A DNA stretch of 53,509 nucleotides from contig CAKZLV010000164.1 of assembly GCA_937127285.1 (NCBI GenBank), positions 1 through 53,509 on the forward strand, read 5' to 3'. The notes under the pieces were generated by a model. That model worked only from the letters and a program-made list of their open reading frames with translations. It was not told the DNA's origin and searched no databases. This document shows, one piece after another, positions 8,091 through 45,202 of this stretch. Within the stretch, counting starts at the first letter, position 1. Each line of letters starts with the position of its first letter. The stretch is from an uncultured Bacteroidota bacterium. Lineage in GTDB: Bacteria > Bacteroidota > Rhodothermia > Rhodothermales > Salinibacteraceae. The translations under genes and the position numbers were made by a program.

Positions 8091-9956
8091 CTACCCGTCC
8101 CGCTCGAGGATGAGGGCGCCGAGCGGGGGGAGGGTGAAGACGGCGCTCTGGTCGCGGCCGTGGGCGCTGGCGTCGTCGGTGTGCACGGCGGCGGGGCCGA
8201 CGCCGGAGCCTTCGTAGACCTCCGCGTCGCTGTTGAGGCGGACCCCATACCGGCCGGGCTCCGGCATCCCGATGCGGTAGTCGGATCGCACCACGGGCGT
8301 GAAGTTGAGCAGGAAGAGAAGCTCCTCGTCGCCGTTGCGGCGGAGGTAGGCGAGGACGCTGTTCTCGCGGTAGTCGTACGAGATCAACTCGAACCCGTCC
8401 TCCTCGTCGTTCCAGAGCGCAGGGTGCTCGGTATAGAGGTGGTTGAGGTCGCCGAGCCACTGTTGGATGCCGGCGTGCAGGTCGTTCTCGGTCAGCCACC
8501 ACTCCAGCTCCTGGTCGTGATTCCATTCGTGGTACTGCCCGAACTCTGCGCCCATGAAGAGGAGCTTCTTGCCGGGATGCCCGAACTGCTGCGCGTAGAG
8601 GAGCCGCAGGTTGGCGGCCTTCTGCCAGTCGTCGCCCGGCATCTTGCCCCAGAGGGATTCCTTGCCGTGCACGACCTCGTCGTGGGAGAGGGGCAGGGTG
8701 TAGTTCTCGGAGAAAGCCCAGGAGAGCGTCCACGTCAGCTCGCCGTGGTGGTACTGCCGGTGCACGGGCTCTTTCTCGACGTAGTCGAGCGTATCGTGCA
8801 TCCACCCCATGTTCCACTTGTAGAGGAAGCCGAGTCCGCCGTAGTCGACGGGGGTGGACACGCCGGGCCAGGCGGTGGATTCCTCCGCGAGCATGAGTGC
8901 CTCCGGAAATTCCTCGTAGACCCGCTCGTTCGTGTCCTGAAGCAGGGAGATCGCCTCCAGATTCTCGCGTCCGCCGTATACGTTCGGCGACCAGTCGCCC
9001 TCCCGGGAGTAGTCGCGGTAGAGCATCGAGGCGACGGCGTCGACGCGGAGGCCGTCGACGTGGTACTCGTCCAGCCAGAAGAGGGCGTTGGAGATGAGGA
9101 AGCTGCGCACGCCCGGCTTCCCGAAGTCGAAGACGTTTGTGCCCCAGTCGGGATGGGAGCGCATGAGCGGGTCGCCGTACTCGAAGAGGTGGGACCCGTC
9201 GAAGTAACTGAGTCCCTGCGGGTCGGTCGCAAAATGCCCCGGCACCCAGTCCATGATCACGCCGATCCCGCGCTCATGCAGCGTGTCGATGAGAAACTTG
9301 AGGTCGTCGGGTGAGCCGTAGCGGAAGGTGGGGGCGTAGTAGCCGAGCACCTGGTAGCCCCAGGACCCGTAGTAGGGATGTTCGGCCAGGGGCATGAACT
9401 CGACGTGGGTGAAGCCGAGCTCCTCGACGTGGTCGGCGAGCGGTTCGGCGATCTCGCGATAGCCGAGCGATTGGCCCGGTTCCTCATGCATCCAGGACCC
9501 GAGGTGCACCTCGTAGATCGAAAGCGGTCCGTCGAGGCTACCGGGCCCCTCGCGGGTCTCCATCCAGTCGCCGTCCTGCCAGTCGTACCCGTCCAGGTCC
9601 GTGATAATGGCGGAAAGCCCCTCGTAGGTGTTCTGCGCCGGGGCCTCCATGCGGAAGGCGAACGGATCGGTGCGGTCGTACTCGGTGTAGTTCGCCTGGA
9701 TGCGGTACTTGTACTTGTCCCCGGGCGAGGCGCCGGCGACGAACCCTTCCCAGATGCCGCCGTCTCGTTTCTCCAGAACGTTCGCGTCGGGGGTCCACCC
9801 GTTGAAGTCGCCCATGACGGACACGCGGTAGGCGTTCGGGGCCCAGACGGCGAACTGCGTTCCGTCGTCCTGCGGGTGCGCCCCCATCTTTTCGTAGCTT
9901 GTGTAGTGGGTGCCTTCGTTCCAGAGGTAGAGGTCTTCGTCGGATAGGTGCGGCAT
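8091..9956 (-). CDS. glgB: 1,4-alpha-glucan branching enzyme
   Basis: The 621-residue GH13 enzyme introduces alpha-1,6 branches into linear glucan. A single N-terminal CBM48/early-set domain covers about residues 25-120 ('[20 protein letters not shown]'). It is followed by the (beta/alpha)8 barrel with the nucleophile Asp306 in 'GLRVDAVAS' and the acid/base Glu358 in 'LMLAEES'. '[17 protein letters not shown]' and '[11 protein letters not shown]' are also typical. The short length against ~730 residues in E. coli reflects loss of the first N-domain, common in the family. It is the last gene of the - strand block glgE, treS-mak, serpin, glgB and would branch the linear chains made by GlgE. Confidence 0.95.
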
Positions 9957-10092: not shown

Positions 10093-10132
10093 ACGGGCGC
10101 GGCGCCCGGTCGAATCGGGACACCGCGCCCGT
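10093..10132. terminator. Hairpin between serpin gene and glgB
   Basis: A perfect 10-bp stem (ACGGGCGCGG / CCGCGCCCGT) encloses a 20-nt loop, 41 bp beyond the serpin stop. Neither side has a real T-tract, so it may attenuate or stabilise rather than terminate. If it does terminate, glgB needs its own promoter. Confidence 0.4.
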
Positions 10133-10172: not shown

Positions 10173-11441
10173 CTACGCCGTCGGGTCCATGACCGTCCCG
10201 AGAAAGAGGATCGTCCCCGAGTGGTTCTCCCGGATGGCCACGACGAACGGCCGGTCGACGACGACCTCGGGCGGAACGGACACCACCCCGATGCCGACGG
10301 CCGTGGCCGCGCTCGCTTCGGTACCCTCTTCGTCGACCTGCAGCGTCGTCTTGTGCTTCACGTCGTCGATCGCCAGGTTCGCATCGGCGATGTCTCGGAA
10401 GTTGGCGCCGTCGGAGAAGGCGATGCCCATTCCGAGGGAGCGGAGAATGCGGGGCAGGCTGCGCTCGTCCTCCAGCGTGAACTTCGGCATCTGCAGGCGG
10501 CTCAAGCCCTGGGGACGCATGCGGTCGGTGATTCGGGCCCAGGCGTCGGTGTCGAGCGTGTCGACGAGCCCCTGAACGGTGTTGTCTCCGCGCGGTATGA
10601 GAAGGGTCATGGAGTAGAGGCTGTCGCCGTAGGCAACGTCGACGGCGGTGAACGCGTCGGTGCGGTAGAAGGGGTGCGTCACGTTCTCGGTGCGCTCCAT
10701 CATCGGCACGGAGACGGTCGACCCGTCGGCGCGAGTAAACGGCCGTTCGCGCGTGTCGGCCGGATCGAACGGCACCCGCCAGTCCCCGGCGAAGTAGGTG
10801 GCGTTGATGAGGTACATGCGGAGGTCGCCCGGGATGCGACGGGGGACGATCGCGTCGATGTTGCCGCCGGTCGCGTCGGCGACCCAATTGTTGATGCGAT
10901 CGGACGCGGAGGGATCGGCGAAGTCGAGCCCTGCCACCTCGGCGTCGAAGTGCTCCCGATTCGTGTCGATGAAGGGCTGCTTGACGTTGAAGTGATTGTC
11001 GTGCCAGATCGAGTTGGCGATGGAGACCTCGACGCTCGGATCCAGGGTCGTCAGAAGGTCGAGGAGTCCGCGGTACGCGTCGTTGATCTCATCGGGGTCG
11101 AGGTCTTGTTTGCGGAGTGCGGTTTCCATGGCCGCTCGGGTGTCGCCCCGGGCGCCGTTGAGCGTCATGCCGAGGGCCATCGACACGCTGAGGGGAGAGA
11201 GGAAGACGTTGCCGCCGTCCTCGGCGCGGACGGTTTCGCGGAAGAGGGAGAGGCCGAACGCGTTGTCGGCCGTTACCACGTCTTTCTCGGCGGCCGTGAG
11301 CGGGCGCGGCGGGTCGGCCGGGGCGGAGGTGTCGGTGTCGCTGCCGGCCAGGTCGCAGCCGCCGGCAAGGAATCCGGCGAGAACGGGGATCAGAAACGCG
11401 CGAATCGCGGAGCGAAGCAGGGGAGACGGAAGCAAGAGCAT
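10173..11441 (-). CDS. Serpin (serine protease inhibitor) lipoprotein
   Basis: The 422-residue protein is a full-length serpin with a lipoprotein signal ('FLAGGC'), so it probably sits on the cell envelope facing outward. Serpin landmarks include 'NAFGLSLFRETV', 'NVFLSPLSVSMALGMTLNGA', 'INNWVADATGGNIDAIV', 'LINATYFAGDW' and the C-terminal 'RPFVVAIRENHSGTILFLG'. The hinge 'EEGTEASAAT' has the small residues needed for loop insertion, so it should be inhibitory. Counting from the hinge (P15 Gly373, P8 Thr380) puts the scissile bond at P1 Val387 / P1' Ser388. This predicts elastase-like targets. The start at 11441 is the only one that gives a proper lipobox; upstream in-frame sequence is repeat DNA. 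It is flanked by treS-mak upstream and glgB downstream on the same strand. Confidence 0.93.
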   Translation of the reverse strand: MLLLPSPLLRSAIRAFLIPVLAGFLAGGCDLAGSDTDTSAPADPPRPLTAAEKDVVTADNAFGLSLFRETVRAEDGGNVFLSPLSVSMALGMTLNGARGDTRAAMETALRKQDLDPDEINDAYRGLLDLLTTLDPSVEVSIANSIWHDNHFNVKQPFIDTNREHFDAEVAGLDFADPSASDRINNWVADATGGNIDAIVPRRIPGDLRMYLINATYFAGDWRVPFDPADTRERPFTRADGSTVSVPMMERTENVTHPFYRTDAFTAVDVAYGDSLYSMTLLIPRGDNTVQGLVDTLDTDAWARITDRMRPQGLSRLQMPKFTLEDERSLPRILRSLGMGIAFSDGANFRDIADANLAIDDVKHKTTLQVDEEGTEASAATAVGIGVVSVPPEVVVDRPFVVAIRENHSGTILFLGTVMDPTA

Positions 11442-11550
11442 ACGGGGGCGGGAGGGGGTCGGAAACGAGAACGGAAGAAAAGGCGGCGACGAATGATGGG
11501 CGCCGCGTCGTTTCCATAAACCCGCGACCGGGCCCGAACACACAGGGGGG

Positions 11551-11786
11551 CGTGGGGGCGTGGGAGCGTGGGGGCGTGGGAGCGTGGGGGCTTGGGAGCG
11601 TGGGGGCTTGGGAGCGTGGGGGCTTTGGACGCTGGGGACGCTGTGGGGGCTGTGGACGCGGGGGGACCTGGACGCTGGGAATGCTTGGGATGCGGCCGTG
11701 GGGACCGTTCGCATCGAAGACCGGTGCCCACTCCCCCAACCACGAACCACGAACGAATACCGACCAACGAATACCGACTAATCGGC
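11551..11786. repeat. Composite repeat: G-rich 8-mers, spacer, C-rich heptamers
   Basis: Ten 8-bp units alternating CGTGGGGG and CGTGGGAG (or CTTGGGAG) run from 11551 to 11630. They pass into looser GGACGCTG words up to about 11690. After a spacer, heptamers AACCACG, AACGAAT, ACCGACC, AACGAAT and ACCGACT run from 11738 to 11786. The last units overlap the stop codon of treS-mak. The block fills the space upstream of the serpin gene. Confidence 0.85.
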
Positions 11787-14700
11787 CGGGACCGGGTCGG
11801 TTGTTCCGAGGAGGCGGTGCAGGCCGCGCAGTGGAAGCCAGGCCCACGACGGTCGGTGGTTGATCTCGTAGCGAACCTCGTAGAGCGCCTTGTCGAAGAG
11901 GTAGGCCCAGAGGAAGGCGTCGCGCGCCTCGTGCGGTTGGAGGAAGCGGGCGTCGCCCGCCGTCTCGCCGTAGGCATCGAGGAAGGTGACGTCGGACCAG
12001 TAGAGTACGCTGTCGATCCAGGACGCATAGTCCGGGTCGGTGTCTGTCTGGTCCTGCCAGGCGGCCAGTACGGCGTACTCCAGCGACCGCAGCATTCCGG
12101 CAACGTCGCGCAGCGCGTTGGTGCGCCGACGTCGCTCTTCGAGCGGCCGGGCGGGCTCGCCCTCAAAGTCAAGCAGGTAAAAGTCGCCGTCGGCGCGCAG
12201 CACCTGCCCGAGGTGGTAGTCGCCATGGATGCGGATGTGATCGAACCCGCCGCCGAACGCCTCCAGCTGGTCGAGGCGGGCGTGGGCACGCGCCCAGCGG
12301 TCGGGGGAGAGCGGCGTGTTGAGGCCGTCGAGGTCGGTCTGGTCGAGCAGGCGGCGCGTGTCGGCGGCCTCGCGCCGAATCCGGTCGGCCAGGTCGCGGC
12401 CGGCGGTATCGGGGGCGGGTACGGGTCGAAGGTCCGGCGCCTCCGCCTCGGCGAGGGCCCGGTGCAACTCGGCCGTTCGAACGCCCAGTACCCGGGCCAG
12501 GTCGATCATTTCGTTTGCTACGTCGTCGAGCCAGACCGGTACGGTGGCGCCGTCGGTCGGGCCGTAGGTGCCGTTGCTGGACGGCCGGGTGGCGTCCGGA
12601 GGGAATTTGACGTTCGTCACGCGGTCCAGCAGCCGCGCGGTGACGTCCAGCGCGTACGACCAGCCGTCCGTGTCGACGGGGAGCGCCTGCTGCAGGATGC
12701 CGAGCGTGTACCGGCGGTCGCTGCGCCGGAAGTCGATCGTCCCGTGCAGGCGGGGGGTGAATCCGTATCCGACCGAGGTGAGGTGGTCGAGCAGTTCCTT
12801 TTCGGGGTTCGTGCCGCGTTCCAGGCGGCGGTAGAGCTTGACGAAGTAGGCGTCGTTGACGATCGCCGAGGTGTTGGACTGCTCGCCCGTGAGCAGGGTC
12901 ACGGTGTGCGGCCGCTCGCGCTGGGCGGCCGAGGACGGGTTGGCCACGTACACGCCCTTCAGCGATCGTCCCTTGCTTCCTTCCTTCCACCAGCGGAAGA
13001 GAATGCTCCAGAAGTCCGTGGTCACGGTGGCGTCGTGCAGCAGTCCGCCGCCCCCGCCGTCCACGTCCAGCCAGGCCAGCGCGGCTGCGGGTTGGTCGCG
13101 CAGGATCTGCTCGGACGTCTCCGGGTCGGTGGTGACGGCGAGGGGAAGGGTGTAGAAGGCTCGGTCGTCCCCCAGTTCGGCCTCCAGAATGGAGAGATAG
13201 ACCGTGGGCTGGGCCCGCAGCCGCACGGCGTCTTCAACCCGGACGCGGTCGAGGGAGTGCCCTTTGGCGCCGAACCACCGCTGCTCGCGGAGGAAATCCG
13301 GAAGCAACGCTTCCAGCGCTTCGGGACCGGTGTACTGCGCCATGGTGGGAACGAGGAGGTTTTGCAGGCCCTCGGCCACCTGCAGCACCGGCAGGTCGAG
13401 CCCGTCCGGGCCGGTTTCGGCCATCTGCAGGCCGCTCCGCCGGTGCTCGGCCGCGGCGGGGAGCTCCGCTTCGGGCTCCAGCTTGAACCAGTAGAATCCG
13501 TGCGGCCCCAGGATCACCTGGTAGTCCTCGTCCTCCGAAAGCGTCGGGAAGGGCGACTGGCTGAAGAGCTCCACGGGTGCCAGGCCGTCGAGGCGTCCGT
13601 CGGTCGGGATCTGCACCGGCTGCGCGTAGCGCGACAGGTTGGCGACGACGAGAATCTGCTCTCCCTCGTACTCGCGGAGGAACGCCAGAACGGCCTGGTT
13701 GTCGACCTCGAGGAGGTGAAACTCGCCGCGGCCGAACACCTTCTTGTGCTGCTGCCGCAGCGAAATCATCCGCCGCATGAAGTGCAGCAGCGAGTGCGGG
13801 TCGTTTTCTTCGTCCTCCACGTTGACGATCTCGTAGCTGTAGCGGCCCCGGTTGATCGGCGGCATAAACAGCTTGTGGTGCGGGGCGCGCGAAAAGCCGC
13901 CGTTCTTGTCCGGGCTCCACTGCATGGGCGTCCGCACCCCGTTGCGGTCGCCGAGGAACGGGTCGTCGCCCATCCCGATCTCGTCGCCGTAGTAAAGGAC
14001 GGGGCTTCCGTTGAGGGAGAGCAGGAGGGCGTTCATCAGCTCGATGCGGCGACGATCGCCCCCGAGCAGGGGGGCGAGGCGGCGCCGGATGCCGACGTTG
14101 ATGCGAAACCGGTCGTCGGCGGCGTACTCGTGGTACATGTAGTCCCGCTCCTCGTCCGTCACCATTTCGAGGGTTAGCTCGTCGTGGTTGCGCAGGAAGA
14201 TGGCCCACTGCGCGTCGTCGGGGATGTCGGCCGTCTGCTCCATCATCTGGACGAGGGGCCGGCGGTTGCCCCGACGCAGCGCCATAAACATGCGGGGCAT
14301 GATCGGGAAGTTGAACGCCATCTGCACGCCGGTCGACTGCCCCTCGTCGTCCATTCCGAAGTAGGGGAGGGTGTCCTCGGGCCACTGGTTGGCCTCGGCG
14401 AGCAGCACCTTGCCCGGCCCGTACCGCTCCTCGACCGCGGCCCGGAGCTCTTTGATATAGTGGATGGTTTCGGGGAGGTTTTCGGAATTGGTGCCTTCCC
14501 GTTCGTAGAGGTAGGGGACGGCGTCGAGGCGGAGGCCGTCCACGCCCAGGTCCAGCCAGAAGAACATCACCTCCTTCATCGTCTGCCGCACCTCCGGGTT
14601 ATCGTAATTCAGATCCGGCTGGTGGCTGAAGAAGCGGTGCCAGTAGTACTTCTGGGCCTTCTGGTCCCAGGTCCAATTCGACACCTCCGTGTCGGTAAAG

Positions 14701-15137
14701 ATGATGCGGACGTCCTCGTACTTCTCGTCCGTCTCGCTCCACACGTACCAGTCGTGCTTGTCGGAGTCCGGGTCGCGCGCCTCCTGAAACCACGGGTGCT
14801 GGTCGGAGGTGTGGTTGAGCACCAGCTCGGTGATGACGCGCATCCCGCGCTCGTGGGCTTCGTCGAGGAAGGCCTGGAAGTCGCTCAGGTCCCCGTGCAC
14901 GGGCAGGACCTTGAAGTAGTCCGACGTGTCGTAGCCGTCGTCCTTGAGCGGGCTTTCGAGGAAGGGAAGGAGCCAGAGGGTGTTTACGCCCAGCCGTTCC
15001 AGATAGGGAAGCTTCTCCCGCAGCCCCTGGAAGTCGCCGGTTCCGTCGTTGTTGGAATCGTAGAACGAGCGAACGTGCAGCTCGTAGATGACGGCGTCTT
15101 TGTACCAGAGGGGGTCGCTCAGGAAGTCGTCGGGCAT
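11778..15137 (-). CDS. treS: Trehalose synthase fused to maltokinase
   Basis: The 1119-residue fusion carries two steps of the GlgE pathway. Residues 1 to about 560 are a GH13 trehalose synthase (trehalose to maltose), with 'GLRLDAVPYLY' (nucleophile Asp205) and 'LLAEANQWPED' (Glu248). Residues from about 610 to the end are a maltokinase that phosphorylates maltose to maltose-1-phosphate with ATP. Its kinase-like catalytic loop is 'HGDYHLGQ' (Asp973), and 'LLDFEGEP' serves as the metal-binding motif. TreS-Pep2/Mak fusions are known in several bacterial groups. The product feeds GlgE, encoded 200 bp upstream on the same strand. The ATG at 15137 starts 'PDDFLSDPLWYKDAVIYE', the normal TreS N-terminus. 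The 3' end overlaps a heptamer array. Confidence 0.95.
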   Translation of the reverse strand: MPDDFLSDPLWYKDAVIYELHVRSFYDSNNDGTGDFQGLREKLPYLERLGVNTLWLLPFLESPLKDDGYDTSDYFKVLPVHGDLSDFQAFLDEAHERGMRVITELVLNHTSDQHPWFQEARDPDSDKHDWYVWSETDEKYEDVRIIFTDTEVSNWTWDQKAQKYYWHRFFSHQPDLNYDNPEVRQTMKEVMFFWLDLGVDGLRLDAVPYLYEREGTNSENLPETIHYIKELRAAVEERYGPGKVLLAEANQWPEDTLPYFGMDDEGQSTGVQMAFNFPIMPRMFMALRRGNRRPLVQMMEQTADIPDDAQWAIFLRNHDELTLEMVTDEERDYMYHEYAADDRFRINVGIRRRLAPLLGGDRRRIELMNALLLSLNGSPVLYYGDEIGMGDDPFLGDRNGVRTPMQWSPDKNGGFSRAPHHKLFMPPINRGRYSYEIVNVEDEENDPHSLLHFMRRMISLRQQHKKVFGRGEFHLLEVDNQAVLAFLREYEGEQILVVANLSRYAQPVQIPTDGRLDGLAPVELFSQSPFPTLSEDEDYQVILGPHGFYWFKLEPEAELPAAAEHRRSGLQMAETGPDGLDLPVLQVAEGLQNLLVPTMAQYTGPEALEALLPDFLREQRWFGAKGHSLDRVRVEDAVRLRAQPTVYLSILEAELGDDRAFYTLPLAVTTDPETSEQILRDQPAAALAWLDVDGGGGGLLHDATVTTDFWSILFRWWKEGSKGRSLKGVYVANPSSAAQRERPHTVTLLTGEQSNTSAIVNDAYFVKLYRRLERGTNPEKELLDHLTSVGYGFTPRLHGTIDFRRSDRRYTLGILQQALPVDTDGWSYALDVTARLLDRVTNVKFPPDATRPSSNGTYGPTDGATVPVWLDDVANEMIDLARVLGVRTAELHRALAEAEAPDLRPVPAPDTAGRDLADRIRREAADTRRLLDQTDLDGLNTPLSPDRWARAHARLDQLEAFGGGFDHIRIHGDYHLGQVLRADGDFYLLDFEGEPARPLEERRRRTNALRDVAGMLRSLEYAVLAAWQDQTDTDPDYASWIDSVLYWSDVTFLDAYGETAGDARFLQPHEARDAFLWAYLFDKALYEVRYEINHRPSWAWLPLRGLHRLLGTTDPVPAD

Positions 15138-15337: not shown

Positions 15338-17413
<2,076 letters not shown>

Positions 17414-17480
17414 GAGCCGAAAGGCGATTGCAGGAGAGAGGGGGCGGCAGGTGCAGGGGGCGACCGGGGCGAACCGGGGG

Positions 17481-18086
17481 CTACTCGGCCGGAAATCCGC
17501 CCAGCAGAACCGCCTGGGCGGTGATTCGGATGTTCTCCGTTCGGCCGACGCCGTAAAGAGCAATGCGGGTATCGTCCAGAACCGTCTCCATCGGGTCGTC
17601 CTCGGTGCGGGCGTAGGCGTAGCCGTCGATCAAGTGGTTGGATATCTCCGTGGCCCGTTCCTCCAGAATGTGGTCGCCGCCGTCTCCGAAGGACGGAATT
17701 TGCAGATGCGTGAAGGCGTGAACCTGGTCGGACGGTGCGTGGCTGGGGGCGTTGTAGCCGAAGAGAATCGAGTCGCCCGTGATGCCCGACGACACGGTCA
17801 GGCGAAGCTGCAGGTACGACGTGGCAAAGTCGAGAATCTGCTCCGGCAGGTCCTCGTCCCAATCCGACGCCGGAACCGGCGCCCAGTCCGCCCCCCAGAT
17901 GTCTTTTTCAACCTGAACCGAGCGGCCCAGCCGCCCGAAAAAGAAGCTGGGGCTGGACGGGGGCAGGGCCACCTCGCGAGCCAGGTCGCCCACGCCGGGC
18001 TTGTCCTTCAGGCTCTCCAGGTCGGTGGAAGACCAGTTCGTCTCGAAGAGAGGAACCGGAGAGATGCGACGAAACGAAGTACTCAT
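17481..18086 (-). CDS. Conserved-looking protein of unknown function heading the GlgE block
   Basis: The 201-residue protein has no signal peptide or membrane segment. I do not recognise its family. It is acidic, has a Phe/Gly segment 'SFFFGRLGRS' near residue 50, a central part rich in aromatic and small residues ('SILFGYNAPSHAPSDQVHAFTHLQIPSFGD'), and ends 'ITAQAVLLGGFPAE'. Codon use matches its neighbours and the start (ATG, 18086) is clear. Only 67 bp separate it from glgE, so it is probably the first gene of that transcript. A link to glucan or trehalose metabolism is suggested only by position. Confidence 0.75.
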   Translation of the reverse strand: MSTSFRRISPVPLFETNWSSTDLESLKDKPGVGDLAREVALPPSSPSFFFGRLGRSVQVEKDIWGADWAPVPASDWDEDLPEQILDFATSYLQLRLTVSSGITGDSILFGYNAPSHAPSDQVHAFTHLQIPSFGDGGDHILEERATEISNHLIDGYAYARTEDDPMETVLDDTRIALYGVGRTENIRITAQAVLLGGFPAE

Positions 18087-36244: not shown

Positions 36245-38116
36245 TCAGCGGACCACGACCACCTTCCCCGTTTCGACGCGAGGTCCGCTTCGCAGACGGT
36301 ATGGGTACACGCCCGGCGCCAGGTTGCGGAGGTCCAGGCGGAGGGTGTTGGGCCCGGGCTGCAGCGGCATCGAAACCGAGCGGACGCGCCGCCCGAGCAG
36401 GTCGTACAGCTCGATGCGCACCGAGTCCGTCTGCTTCGGGGCGCGCAGCGAGAAGGAGACGCGATCGGACGCTGGGATGGGACGCGGGGGCGAGACCTTG
36501 AGAGCCGACGGCGGCTCAGACCGGGCCCGGCGCTCGGCGGCGCGCACGGCCGCCTCAGCGTCGATGAGGCCCCAGCCGTGGTCGTTTGCCGGCGACGACG
36601 AGCGCGTGGCCGTTTGCCGCAGGATGCGCCGCACCGCCACCGGGCCCAGGCGGGGATTCTGCTGAAGCATCTGCGCGACGACGCCGCTCACGAGCGGACT
36701 GGCGAACGACGTGCCGTTCACCTGCGCGTAGCTCGACGAGTCCCAGGCGGCGACGACCCCGCTTCCCAGGGCGAGAACGTCCGGCTTCGTCCGGCCGTCT
36801 GCCGTCGGGCCGCGGGAGCTGAACGGCGCAACGCTGGAGTCCGGAAGGGCGGCCCCCACGGCGACGGCGGAGTCAGCGTCCGCCGGCGTGCTGACGTAAT
36901 ACCAGCAGTTCTCGGGGCTGTTGCAGCCGGAGTTGCCCGCGCTGACCACGACGGTCATTCCCAGACGAGCCGCTGCATCAACCGCCCGGGTGGTCACGCC
37001 GGTGTCGCCGTCCAGGTCGTCCGTCGTGTAGCTGCGCTCGCCCGCGTCGAAGGTCGTGTAGCCGAGCGACACGTTGACGACGTCGACCCCCTGCCGCTCC
37101 ATCCATTCCAGCCCGGCCACGAAGTAGTCTTCCTCCACGTTTGTTTCGCTCGGGGTGTACTCGGTGGCGGCGGCGTAGATCTCGGCGCCGTGGGCCGGCC
37201 CGACGAGGATGCCGGGGGCGTAGCCGGCGGCGGCCGACACGACGCCGCCGCCGTGGTTGTTTGTTTGCGGCCCCTCGGTAAAGTCGCGGACCCCGCGGAT
37301 TCGCCCCTCCTGGCGCAGGGCGTCGAAGGCCGGATGCCGGAGGCCCCGGTACCCGGTGTCGAGAAAGCCGAGCCGCACGCCGCTCCCGTCGAGGCCGCGC
37401 CGGAGGGGGGCGAGAGCGTTCATCACCTGGAGTTGCGTGTACGAGGCCCCGAAGAAGGAACTGTCGGCATCCGAAGGAACGGTCGGTTGCTGCCGCGGCG
37501 GGGCGGATCGACGCCCGAGATCGGCAATCATCGGATGCCGGGACCGCCCATCGGGCAGCGCAGCCTCGTCGCGCAGGGCGATGTCGCTCTGGTTGTTTCG
37601 GTCGCTTCGGTCGGCCCGTGCTGTCGCCGGCGCGGCCCGGCCGATGCGCCGAATGTCGTCGACCCAGGGCTCGGCGGCGAGGACCTGCTTCTGGGAGGGG
37701 GACAGGACGGCGCTGACCGCGTTGAGCCACCGGCTGACGACGAGGGGGCGAATGTTGCGGTCGCGCAGTCGAGCCCGATGCGCGGGCGAGACGGGACGCG
37801 TGAGGGCGCGGGCTGCTGCCTCCCCGGCGCCGCGATCGGCGCGGCGGCGAACGGTTCGGGCGGGAAGGCCGCCGTCCGAGGGCGCGGCGCCGGCCGTTCC
37901 GGTCGAGGCCGCGGGCCGCTCGGCGAGAAAGATCCAGTACTTGGTGCGGGGAGGTCGGTCCGCGGTTCGGGTCCCGGTCGTCTTCTCCGGCGCAGCCTGC
38001 TGAAGGGCGGCGGGGACCGGCGGGGAGGCCTCCGCCCCGGAGCGAAGAGCGGGGGCGACCACGAACAGGAGGACGCCGAGGAGGCAGGCCGCCGCGGGTG
38101 CCGCCCCGCGGAGCAC
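36245..38116 (-). CDS. Secreted subtilisin-like serine protease with T9SS-type C-terminus
   Basis: With the GTG at 38116 the protein is 623 residues and opens with a clean signal peptide ('LRGAAPAAACLLGVLLFVVAPALRSGAEA'). The S8 catalytic triad is Asp253 ('LGFLDTGYRG'), His288 ('NNHGGGVV') and Ser470 ('VNGTSFASPLVSG'). An N-terminal propeptide-like region covers about residues 40-240. The last ~75 residues ('LYDLLGRRVRSV...NLAPGVYPYRL...GKVVVVR') match the type-A sorting domain recognised by the type IX secretion system. Alternative starts (GTG 38188, TTG 38191, or further up) would add a leader made of 15-bp repeats, so I prefer 38116. Confidence 0.88.
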   Translation of the reverse strand: MLRGAAPAAACLLGVLLFVVAPALRSGAEASPPVPAALQQAAPEKTTGTRTADRPPRTKYWIFLAERPAASTGTAGAAPSDGGLPARTVRRRADRGAGEAAARALTRPVSPAHRARLRDRNIRPLVVSRWLNAVSAVLSPSQKQVLAAEPWVDDIRRIGRAAPATARADRSDRNNQSDIALRDEAALPDGRSRHPMIADLGRRSAPPRQQPTVPSDADSSFFGASYTQLQVMNALAPLRRGLDGSGVRLGFLDTGYRGLRHPAFDALRQEGRIRGVRDFTEGPQTNNHGGGVVSAAAGYAPGILVGPAHGAEIYAAATEYTPSETNVEEDYFVAGLEWMERQGVDVVNVSLGYTTFDAGERSYTTDDLDGDTGVTTRAVDAAARLGMTVVVSAGNSGCNSPENCWYYVSTPADADSAVAVGAALPDSSVAPFSSRGPTADGRTKPDVLALGSGVVAAWDSSSYAQVNGTSFASPLVSGVVAQMLQQNPRLGPVAVRRILRQTATRSSSPANDHGWGLIDAEAAVRAAERRARSEPPSALKVSPPRPIPASDRVSFSLRAPKQTDSVRIELYDLLGRRVRSVSMPLQPGPNTLRLDLRNLAPGVYPYRLRSGPRVETGKVVVVR

Positions 38117-38421
38117 GCCAGGAGCGAATCCGCCGGAAGAGAATCCGCTGGCAGCAAACCCGCCGGAAGAGAACAGACCGGGAGACACCAAAGCAGAGGG
38201 CAGAGGAGGCACGGACGAGCGGAAGGTTCGTCGGGGGAGGCACGCAGGGGGCGAGGAGGCGCCGGGGCGGTCGGGCGTCAGCGGTTGGCCGTCAGCGGTT
38301 GGCCGTCTTCTTGCTGAGCCCGGGGCGAAGCGCTGCGACGGCCTGCCACCGGGCGGGGCCCGCGACCGGGAGGGGCCTGCCACCGGGAGGGCCCTGTGAA
38401 GGGGCGGAGGGAGCGAGACGG
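38117..38421. other. Intergenic region with several short repeat arrays
   Basis: It holds the 15-bp array at 38126-38185, a 14-bp duplication (GCGGTTGGCCGTCA-type, about 38281-38308) and a 17-bp triplicate of CCACCGGGAGGG-like words (about 38340-38395). No gene if the subtilase starts at 38116. Confidence 0.5.
38126..38185. repeat. 15-bp tandem array (4 units) before the subtilase gene
   Basis: GAATCCGCCGGAAGA, GAATCCGCTGGCAGC, AAACCCGCCGGAAGA and GAACAGACCGGGAGA are contiguous with a strict 15-bp period. Translated on the - strand it would read as a Ser/Gly/Phe repeat. Confidence 0.85.
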
Positions 38422-44276: not shown

Positions 44277-44336
44277 GAGCAGGGAGCTTACGAGCAGGGA
44301 GCTTACGAGCAGGGAGCTTACGAGCAGGGAGCCGGA
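44277..44336. repeat. 15-bp tandem array (4 units)
   Basis: GAGCAGGGAGCTTAC occurs three times without mismatch, followed by GAGCAGGGAGCCGGA. It lies in the 96-bp gap between the PspC gene and the folate enzyme gene. Confidence 0.95.
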
Positions 44337-45005: not shown

Positions 45006-45127
45006 AGGGCGAAAGGGCCGGTGTCGACGTCGCTCGGTGAATGGTTTCCGTCCGTCGCCGGCTGAATACGGCGAACCCGGGCAGGAAAGACCGGAGACCG
45101 GACGCGGACCGATCGACACGTCGTCGC

Positions 45128-45202
45128 GATCTCGCGCTGTTCGATCTCGCGCTGTTCGATCTCGCGCTGTTCGATCTCGCGCTGTTCGATCTCGCGCTGT
45201 TC
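45128..45202. repeat. 15-bp perfect tandem array (5 units)
   Basis: GATCTCGCGCTGTTC is repeated five times without a single mismatch, which suggests recent expansion or active slippage. It is the most regular array in the window. Confidence 0.97.

What the first reader, a model, noticed from the sequence alone, without database searches (positions are those of the whole stretch)
10173..11441. Serpin lipoprotein with an alpha-1-antitrypsin-like reactive loop inside the GlgE block
Seen: full serpin with lipobox, inhibitory hinge (E-E-G-T-E-A-S-A-A-T) and, after the predicted P1 Val387/P1' Ser388, the run S-V-P-P-E-V. This parallels S-I-P-P-E-V of human alpha-1-antitrypsin at the same distance from the hinge. 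Bacterial serpins are sporadic. A surface-anchored elastase-type inhibitor between treS-mak and glgB is unexpected. It might protect against the cell's own subtilase (36245-38116) or against predators and competitors.
Basis: partly seen in the sequence, partly recalled or inferred. Interest (0 to 1): 0.65.

Follow-up and report, generated by a model that had tools for sequence, protein, structure and literature searches.

The report
Ordinary bacterial lipoprotein serpin, relocated
The gene is a genuine membrane-anchored protease inhibitor of an ordinary bacterial type; its likeness to human alpha-1-antitrypsin comes from a common bacterial loop pattern plus one changed residue, and it sits in the glycogen-enzyme cluster only in this genome.

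Summary
In detail: window 10173-11441 (minus) encodes a full-length serpin (Pfam E=1e-105) with a lipobox, an intact inhibitory hinge and, 17 residues on, Val387-Ser388 followed by V-P-P-E-V. The interpretation mostly fails. Among 165 bacterial serpin loops, Ser stands at P1' in 141 and S-x-P-P at P1'-P4' in 42, so the alpha-1-antitrypsin likeness is a common bacterial pattern; only P1 Val (usually Thr, 127/165) and the Glu are less usual. A Calditrichota serpin has the same V-V-S-V-P-P. The best solved match is bacterial miropin (278 bits), not alpha-1-antitrypsin (139 bits). The gene forms a supported clade with four Salinibacter/Salinivenus serpins whose predicted P1 is Asp, Ile, Thr or Ile. 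Linkage to glgE is not conserved: relatives with a readable junction, including sister genome G004, have treS-mak directly before glgB without a serpin, while Salinibacter keeps its serpin between an HDAC-like gene and a thioesterase gene. The serpin thus entered the cluster in this lineage; a dispersed 16-bp minisatellite expanded only in this genome abuts it. Most likely it is a suicide inhibitor protecting the envelope from serine proteases; target unknown.

The parts
10173..11441 (-). serpin CDS, 422 aa, start ATG at 11441
   Evidence: PF00079 E 1.4e-105 full length; AlphaFold2 mean pLDDT 85.6, best PDB match miropin TM(target) 0.96
11355..11441 (-). signal peptide with lipobox LAGG|C (Cys29)
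   Evidence: sequence; Cys29 invariant in 17 relatives
10263..10331 (-). reactive loop residues 371-393: hinge EEGTEASAAT, then AVGIGVV|SVPPEV; predicted P1-P1' Val387-Ser388 at 10278-10283
   Evidence: P1 by loop length only
11546..11629 (.). 16-bp minisatellite array (unit CCCACGCTCCCAAGCC on the minus strand), one of many dispersed in this genome, between treS-mak and the serpin
10094..10108 (-). GC-rich hairpin with T-rich tail after the serpin; terminator-like, so serpin and glgB are probably separate transcription units (inferred)
   Evidence: 4 sites found in the region, 1.3 expected
8091..9956 (-). glgB, 1,4-alpha-glucan branching enzyme (context, not part of the serpin unit)
   Evidence: conserved next to treS-mak in relatives
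11778..15137 (-). treS-mak fusion, trehalose synthase / maltokinase (context)
15338..17563 (-). glgE maltosyltransferase (context)

Best explanation
A lipid-anchored inhibitory serpin of the ordinary bacterial (miropin-like) kind. It is made with a signal peptide, lipidated at Cys29 and held in the envelope; a serine protease of elastase-type preference attacks the exposed loop at Val387-Ser388 (or the adjacent Val386), the loop inserts into sheet A and the protease is trapped as a covalent acyl-enzyme, protecting the cell envelope. The gene was inherited within the Salinibacteraceae and inserted between treS-mak and glgB in this lineage, with no functional tie to GlgE metabolism. Shown here: family, hinge, lipobox, kinship, lack of linkage. 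Inferred: anchoring, inhibition, site of cleavage, protective role, route of relocation.
For: Full-length serpin domain; best solved match miropin by sequence (278 bits) and by fold (41% identity). Small-residue hinge E-E-G-T-E-A-S-A-A-T intact, and AlphaFold2 models residues 373-386 as an added strand, i.e. the loop can insert. Lipobox Cys invariant in 17 order-level relatives. The serpin is in a 98-supported clade with four serpins of the same family; with the window's host outside that Salinibacter group in the four-gene tree, this fits vertical descent with many losses. Serpin GC 66.8% and GC3 88.7% match the neighbours. The syntenic sister locus G004 holds hisS, lgt, glgB, treS-mak and glgE in the same order without the serpin. 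Val at P1 is tolerated for elastase in alpha-1-antitrypsin M358V (PMC6168689).
Against: No biochemical evidence. P1 is assigned by loop length; [quoted passage not shown] Cell-surface exposure is unproven: the lipoprotein could face the periplasm. P7-P6' of the loop is not significantly more variable than the core in the five-member clade (4/13 versus 160/319 invariant, p 0.26), so there is no statistical sign of an arms race.
Confidence: 0.78

Rival explanations
1. The serpin regulates the cell's own secreted subtilases (for example the T9SS-tailed S8 enzyme at 36245-38383), preventing self-damage during export.
For: The genome has 9 S8 matches; the encoded subtilase carries a T9SS sorting domain, so it passes the same envelope; miropin inhibits subtilisin (PMC8201313).
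Against: The subtilase is 25 kb away and nothing links it to the serpin; many relatives lack a serpin altogether. Val at P1 is not a preferred subtilisin residue (own knowledge).
Confidence: 0.25
2. The serpin is functionally part of the GlgE glycogen/trehalose cluster (for example co-regulated under osmotic stress).
For: Same strand, lying between treS-mak and glgB.
Against: No serpin in the treS-mak/glgB gap of relatives, including sister G004; serpin and glgE are far apart in complete genomes (G007 1.09 versus 2.92 Mb, G033 4.05 versus 1.12 Mb); 336-bp repeat-bearing gap upstream and terminator-like hairpin downstream.
Confidence: 0.04
3. Acquired from a eukaryote, or converged on alpha-1-antitrypsin under selection by an elastase.
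For: V-S-V-P-P-E-V differs little from the alpha-1-antitrypsin loop; it was the only one of 165 loops to match S[IVL]PPE[VIL].
Against: Nests among serpins of its own class; S-x-P-P is common in bacteria, PPE occurs in 5 loops; alpha-1-antitrypsin scores half as many bits as miropin; the 2021 superfamily phylogeny favours ancient prokaryotic serpins rather than transfer (PMC8233489).
Confidence: 0.03
4. Non-inhibitory serpin (storage, chaperone or hormone-carrier like).
For: Such serpins exist, and bacterial functions are poorly known (PMC8233489, PMC10090351).
Against: Hinge P15-P8 keeps small residues and the G-T-E-A-x-A-A-T pattern; most Group T/U serpins are judged inhibitory (PMC8233489).
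Confidence: 0.08
5. The position in the GlgE cluster is an assembly error of a fragmented draft genome, joined at the dispersed repeat.
For: The genome is in 370 contigs, and the junction upstream of the serpin crosses a repeat with 73 matches in the genome.
Against: The array is 84 bp; serpin and glgB are contiguous without the repeat; treS-mak and glgB on the two sides are neighbours on the same strand in relatives, which a random misjoin would not restore.
Confidence: 0.05

Closest known systems
Miropin (Tannerella forsythia; PDB 5NCS, 5NCT, 5NCU, 5NCW), serpin Group T
   Same: Best match by sequence and fold; same hinge and start of the loop; bacterial
   Different: Miropin loop continues V-K-T-S-S-P-S; here G-V-V-S-V-P-P-E. 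The host here is not an oral pathogen; target unknown
Salinibacter/Salinivenus serpins (G007, G020, G023, G025)
   Same: 63-67% identical, same lipobox, same S-x-P-P loop
   Different: Predicted P1 Ile (G007, one-residue longer loop), Thr (G020), Ile (G023), Asp (G025) instead of Val; located between HDAC-like and thioesterase-accA genes
Human alpha-1-antitrypsin and its M358V variant
   Same: Loop length from hinge to P1', Ser P1', P-P-E-V at P3'-P6'; Val P1 as in M358V
   Different: Half the bit score of miropin; P2 Val not Pro, P4-P3 differ; the bacterial protein is a lipoprotein; no kinship
Chloropin (bacterial serpin)
   Same: Characterised bacterial inhibitory serpin
   Different: Chloropin has P1 Arg and prefers thrombin-like enzymes (PMC10090351)

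Membership tests
Serpin superfamily (PF00079) | full-length serpin domain | tested here: met
   354 bits, profile 2-370/370; fold matched to solved serpins
Serpin superfamily (PF00079) | inhibitory hinge with small residues P15-P8 | tested here: met
   G-T-E-A-S-A-A-T, residues 373-380
Serpin superfamily (PF00079) | metastable native state with loop insertion on cleavage | tested here: inconclusive
   AlphaFold2 draws the loop as an inserted strand 373-386; a single static model does not show metastability
Inhibitory serpins | SDS-stable covalent complex with a target protease | not testable with these tools
   needs protein
Bacterial Group T (miropin-like) serpins | nearest relatives are bacterial miropin-like serpins | tested here: met
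   miropin best of PDB by sequence and fold; tree of 123 bacterial serpins. The published Group T tree itself was not rebuilt
SERPINA / alpha-1-antitrypsin | nearest kin among vertebrate clade A serpins | tested here: not met
   alpha-1-antitrypsin 139 bits versus miropin 278; clade with Salinibacter serpins
Bacterial lipoproteins | signal peptide with lipobox Cys | tested here: met
   LAGG-C29, Cys invariant in 17 relatives; pattern judged by eye
Surface-exposed lipoproteins | export to the outer face | not testable with these tools
   no validated export rule for this class is known to me
GlgE-pathway operon member | conserved linkage to glgE/treS-mak/glgB | tested here: not met
   absent from the treS-mak/glgB junction in relatives; unlinked elsewhere

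The most novel reading that the evidence does not exclude
A serpin that changed both its locus and its predicted specificity (Thr/Ile/Asp to Val at P1) in one lineage of the Salinibacteraceae, riding on a newly expanded dispersed minisatellite that reshuffles genes, and now inhibiting an elastase-like protease of a predator or competitor.
Probability: 0.07. Interest if true: 0.45.

Novelty: new member of a known kind. Interest (0 to 1): 0.2.

Why it matters
It shows that alpha-1-antitrypsin-like loop motifs arise easily from the common bacterial T-S-x-P-P loop and should not be read as elastase mimicry. The Salinibacteraceae give a compact set of related lipoprotein serpins with differing P1 residues, empty sites and decayed copies, useful for asking what free-living bacterial serpins are for.

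Tried and rejected
A single-sequence scan of genome contigs found nothing; an alignment-based scan gave 80 loci. The idea that Salinibacter's serpin locus survives as an empty site in the window's genome was only partly borne out: the thioesterase-accA pair there is followed by nadC, not HDAC, an arrangement shared with G003, and the HDAC-like orthologue was not found (genome 88% complete), so the ancestral position is unresolved. Faster evolution of the loop was tested and not significant. A foreign base composition was looked for and not found. The original miropin paper (PMC4281766) is not held; statements about miropin rest on citing papers and PDB titles. Human serpins were not placed in the tree; comparison with alpha-1-antitrypsin rests on PDB search scores.

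Full report
Observation. The minus-strand ORF 10173-11441 encodes 422 aa. Pfam finds one domain, Serpin PF00079, over the whole profile at E 1.4e-105. It is the only serpin found in the genome. The N-terminus is a signal peptide ending L-A-G-G-C, the Cys invariant in 17 relatives. The hinge E371-EGTEASAAT-380 is followed by AVGIGVV387-S388-VPPEV.

Is the loop special? I read the loops of 165 bacterial serpins: the window's, those of its class and 80 named loci from other genomes. At the length-predicted position, P1 is Thr in 127, Ser in 13, Val in 7; P1' is Ser in 141. Forty-two have S-x-P-P at P1'-P4', and five have PPE in the loop. The window is the only one with S-[IVL]-P-P-E-[VIL], but a Calditrichota serpin (L143) has V-V-S-V-P-P-V. 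So the likeness to alpha-1-antitrypsin is mostly the common bacterial T-S-x-P-P loop, with Thr changed to Val and a Glu that a few others have. The sample is biased towards canonical hinges, since one search pattern used the hinge itself. In the nearest four serpins P1 is Asp, Thr, Ile and Ile (one has a one-residue longer loop). P2 is also Val, so a shift by one residue, as may occur in miropin (PDB mutant V367K/K368A; several cleavage sites, PMC8201313), would still present Val.

Kinship. Among solved structures the best hits are miropin at 278 bits; alpha-1-antitrypsin entries score about 139. The predicted structure (pLDDT 85.6) matches cleaved miropin with TM 0.96 on the target. In a tree of 123 bacterial serpins the window joins the four Salinibacter/Salinivenus serpins at 98 support. 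A tree of GlgE, TreS-Mak, GlgB and AccA places the window's genome next to G004, outside the Salinibacter group. That fits inheritance from the shared ancestor with losses; transfer within the family is not excluded. In the class 100 of 245 genomes have serpins.

Setting. In relatives whose junction could be read, treS-mak and glgB are adjacent without a serpin, most often 50-470 bp apart (in G002 and G003 glgB was not found in the stretch read). Sister genome G004 has the same order of hisS, lgt, glgB, treS-mak, glgE without it (L070). In the genomes G007 (taken to be S. ruber DSM 13855 from its chromosome length, own knowledge) and G033, serpin and glgE lie far apart. Four Salinibacter-group genomes keep the serpin between an HDAC-like gene and thioesterase-accA; in G012 and, as read by eye, G015 only a decayed remnant is there, and in G018 and G024 the two flanking genes are 17-25 bp apart. 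The serpin therefore entered the glgE cluster in the window's lineage. Between treS-mak and the serpin lies an array of a 16-bp minisatellite with 73 matches in this genome, none in the reversed control, and 0-2 in 45 relatives. An array also borders the thioesterase-nadC locus. Repeat-mediated relocation is possible but unproven. A terminator-like hairpin follows the serpin, so I infer a separate transcription unit.

Mechanism. The anatomy fits a suicide inhibitor anchored in the envelope. Val at P1 suits elastase-type enzymes, and alpha-1-antitrypsin M358V keeps elastase inhibition (PMC6168689). The target is unknown: exogenous proteases of competitors, or the cell's own (9 S8 matches). [quoted passage not shown]

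Verdict. Real, correctly described, ordinary.

Noticed in passing
window 11546-11629; G000 genome-wide: A 16-bp minisatellite (CCCACGCTCCCAAGCC and variants) has 73 matches over roughly 45 contigs of this genome on both strands, 0 in the reversed control and 0-2 in 45 relatives. A lineage-specific expansion of a dispersed repeat, sometimes at contig ends.
   Followed up: partly
L045 8677-9323; L234 4471-4898; L232 1168-1184; L239 1830-1854: The HDAC-serpin-thioesterase locus of the Salinibacter group shows intact, decayed and empty states of the serpin in close relatives.
   Followed up: partly
window 36245-38383: Subtilase with a Por secretion-system (T9SS) C-terminal sorting domain.
   Followed up: no
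L025 (G017): A very divergent serpin (about 28-35% identical) with a long branch in the tree, in a genome whose near relative G025 has the usual one.
   Followed up: no
window 44277-44332, 45127-45202: Perfect 15-bp tandem repeats (3.7 and 5.1 copies, 100% match); the period is a multiple of three, so they may be coding.
   Followed up: no
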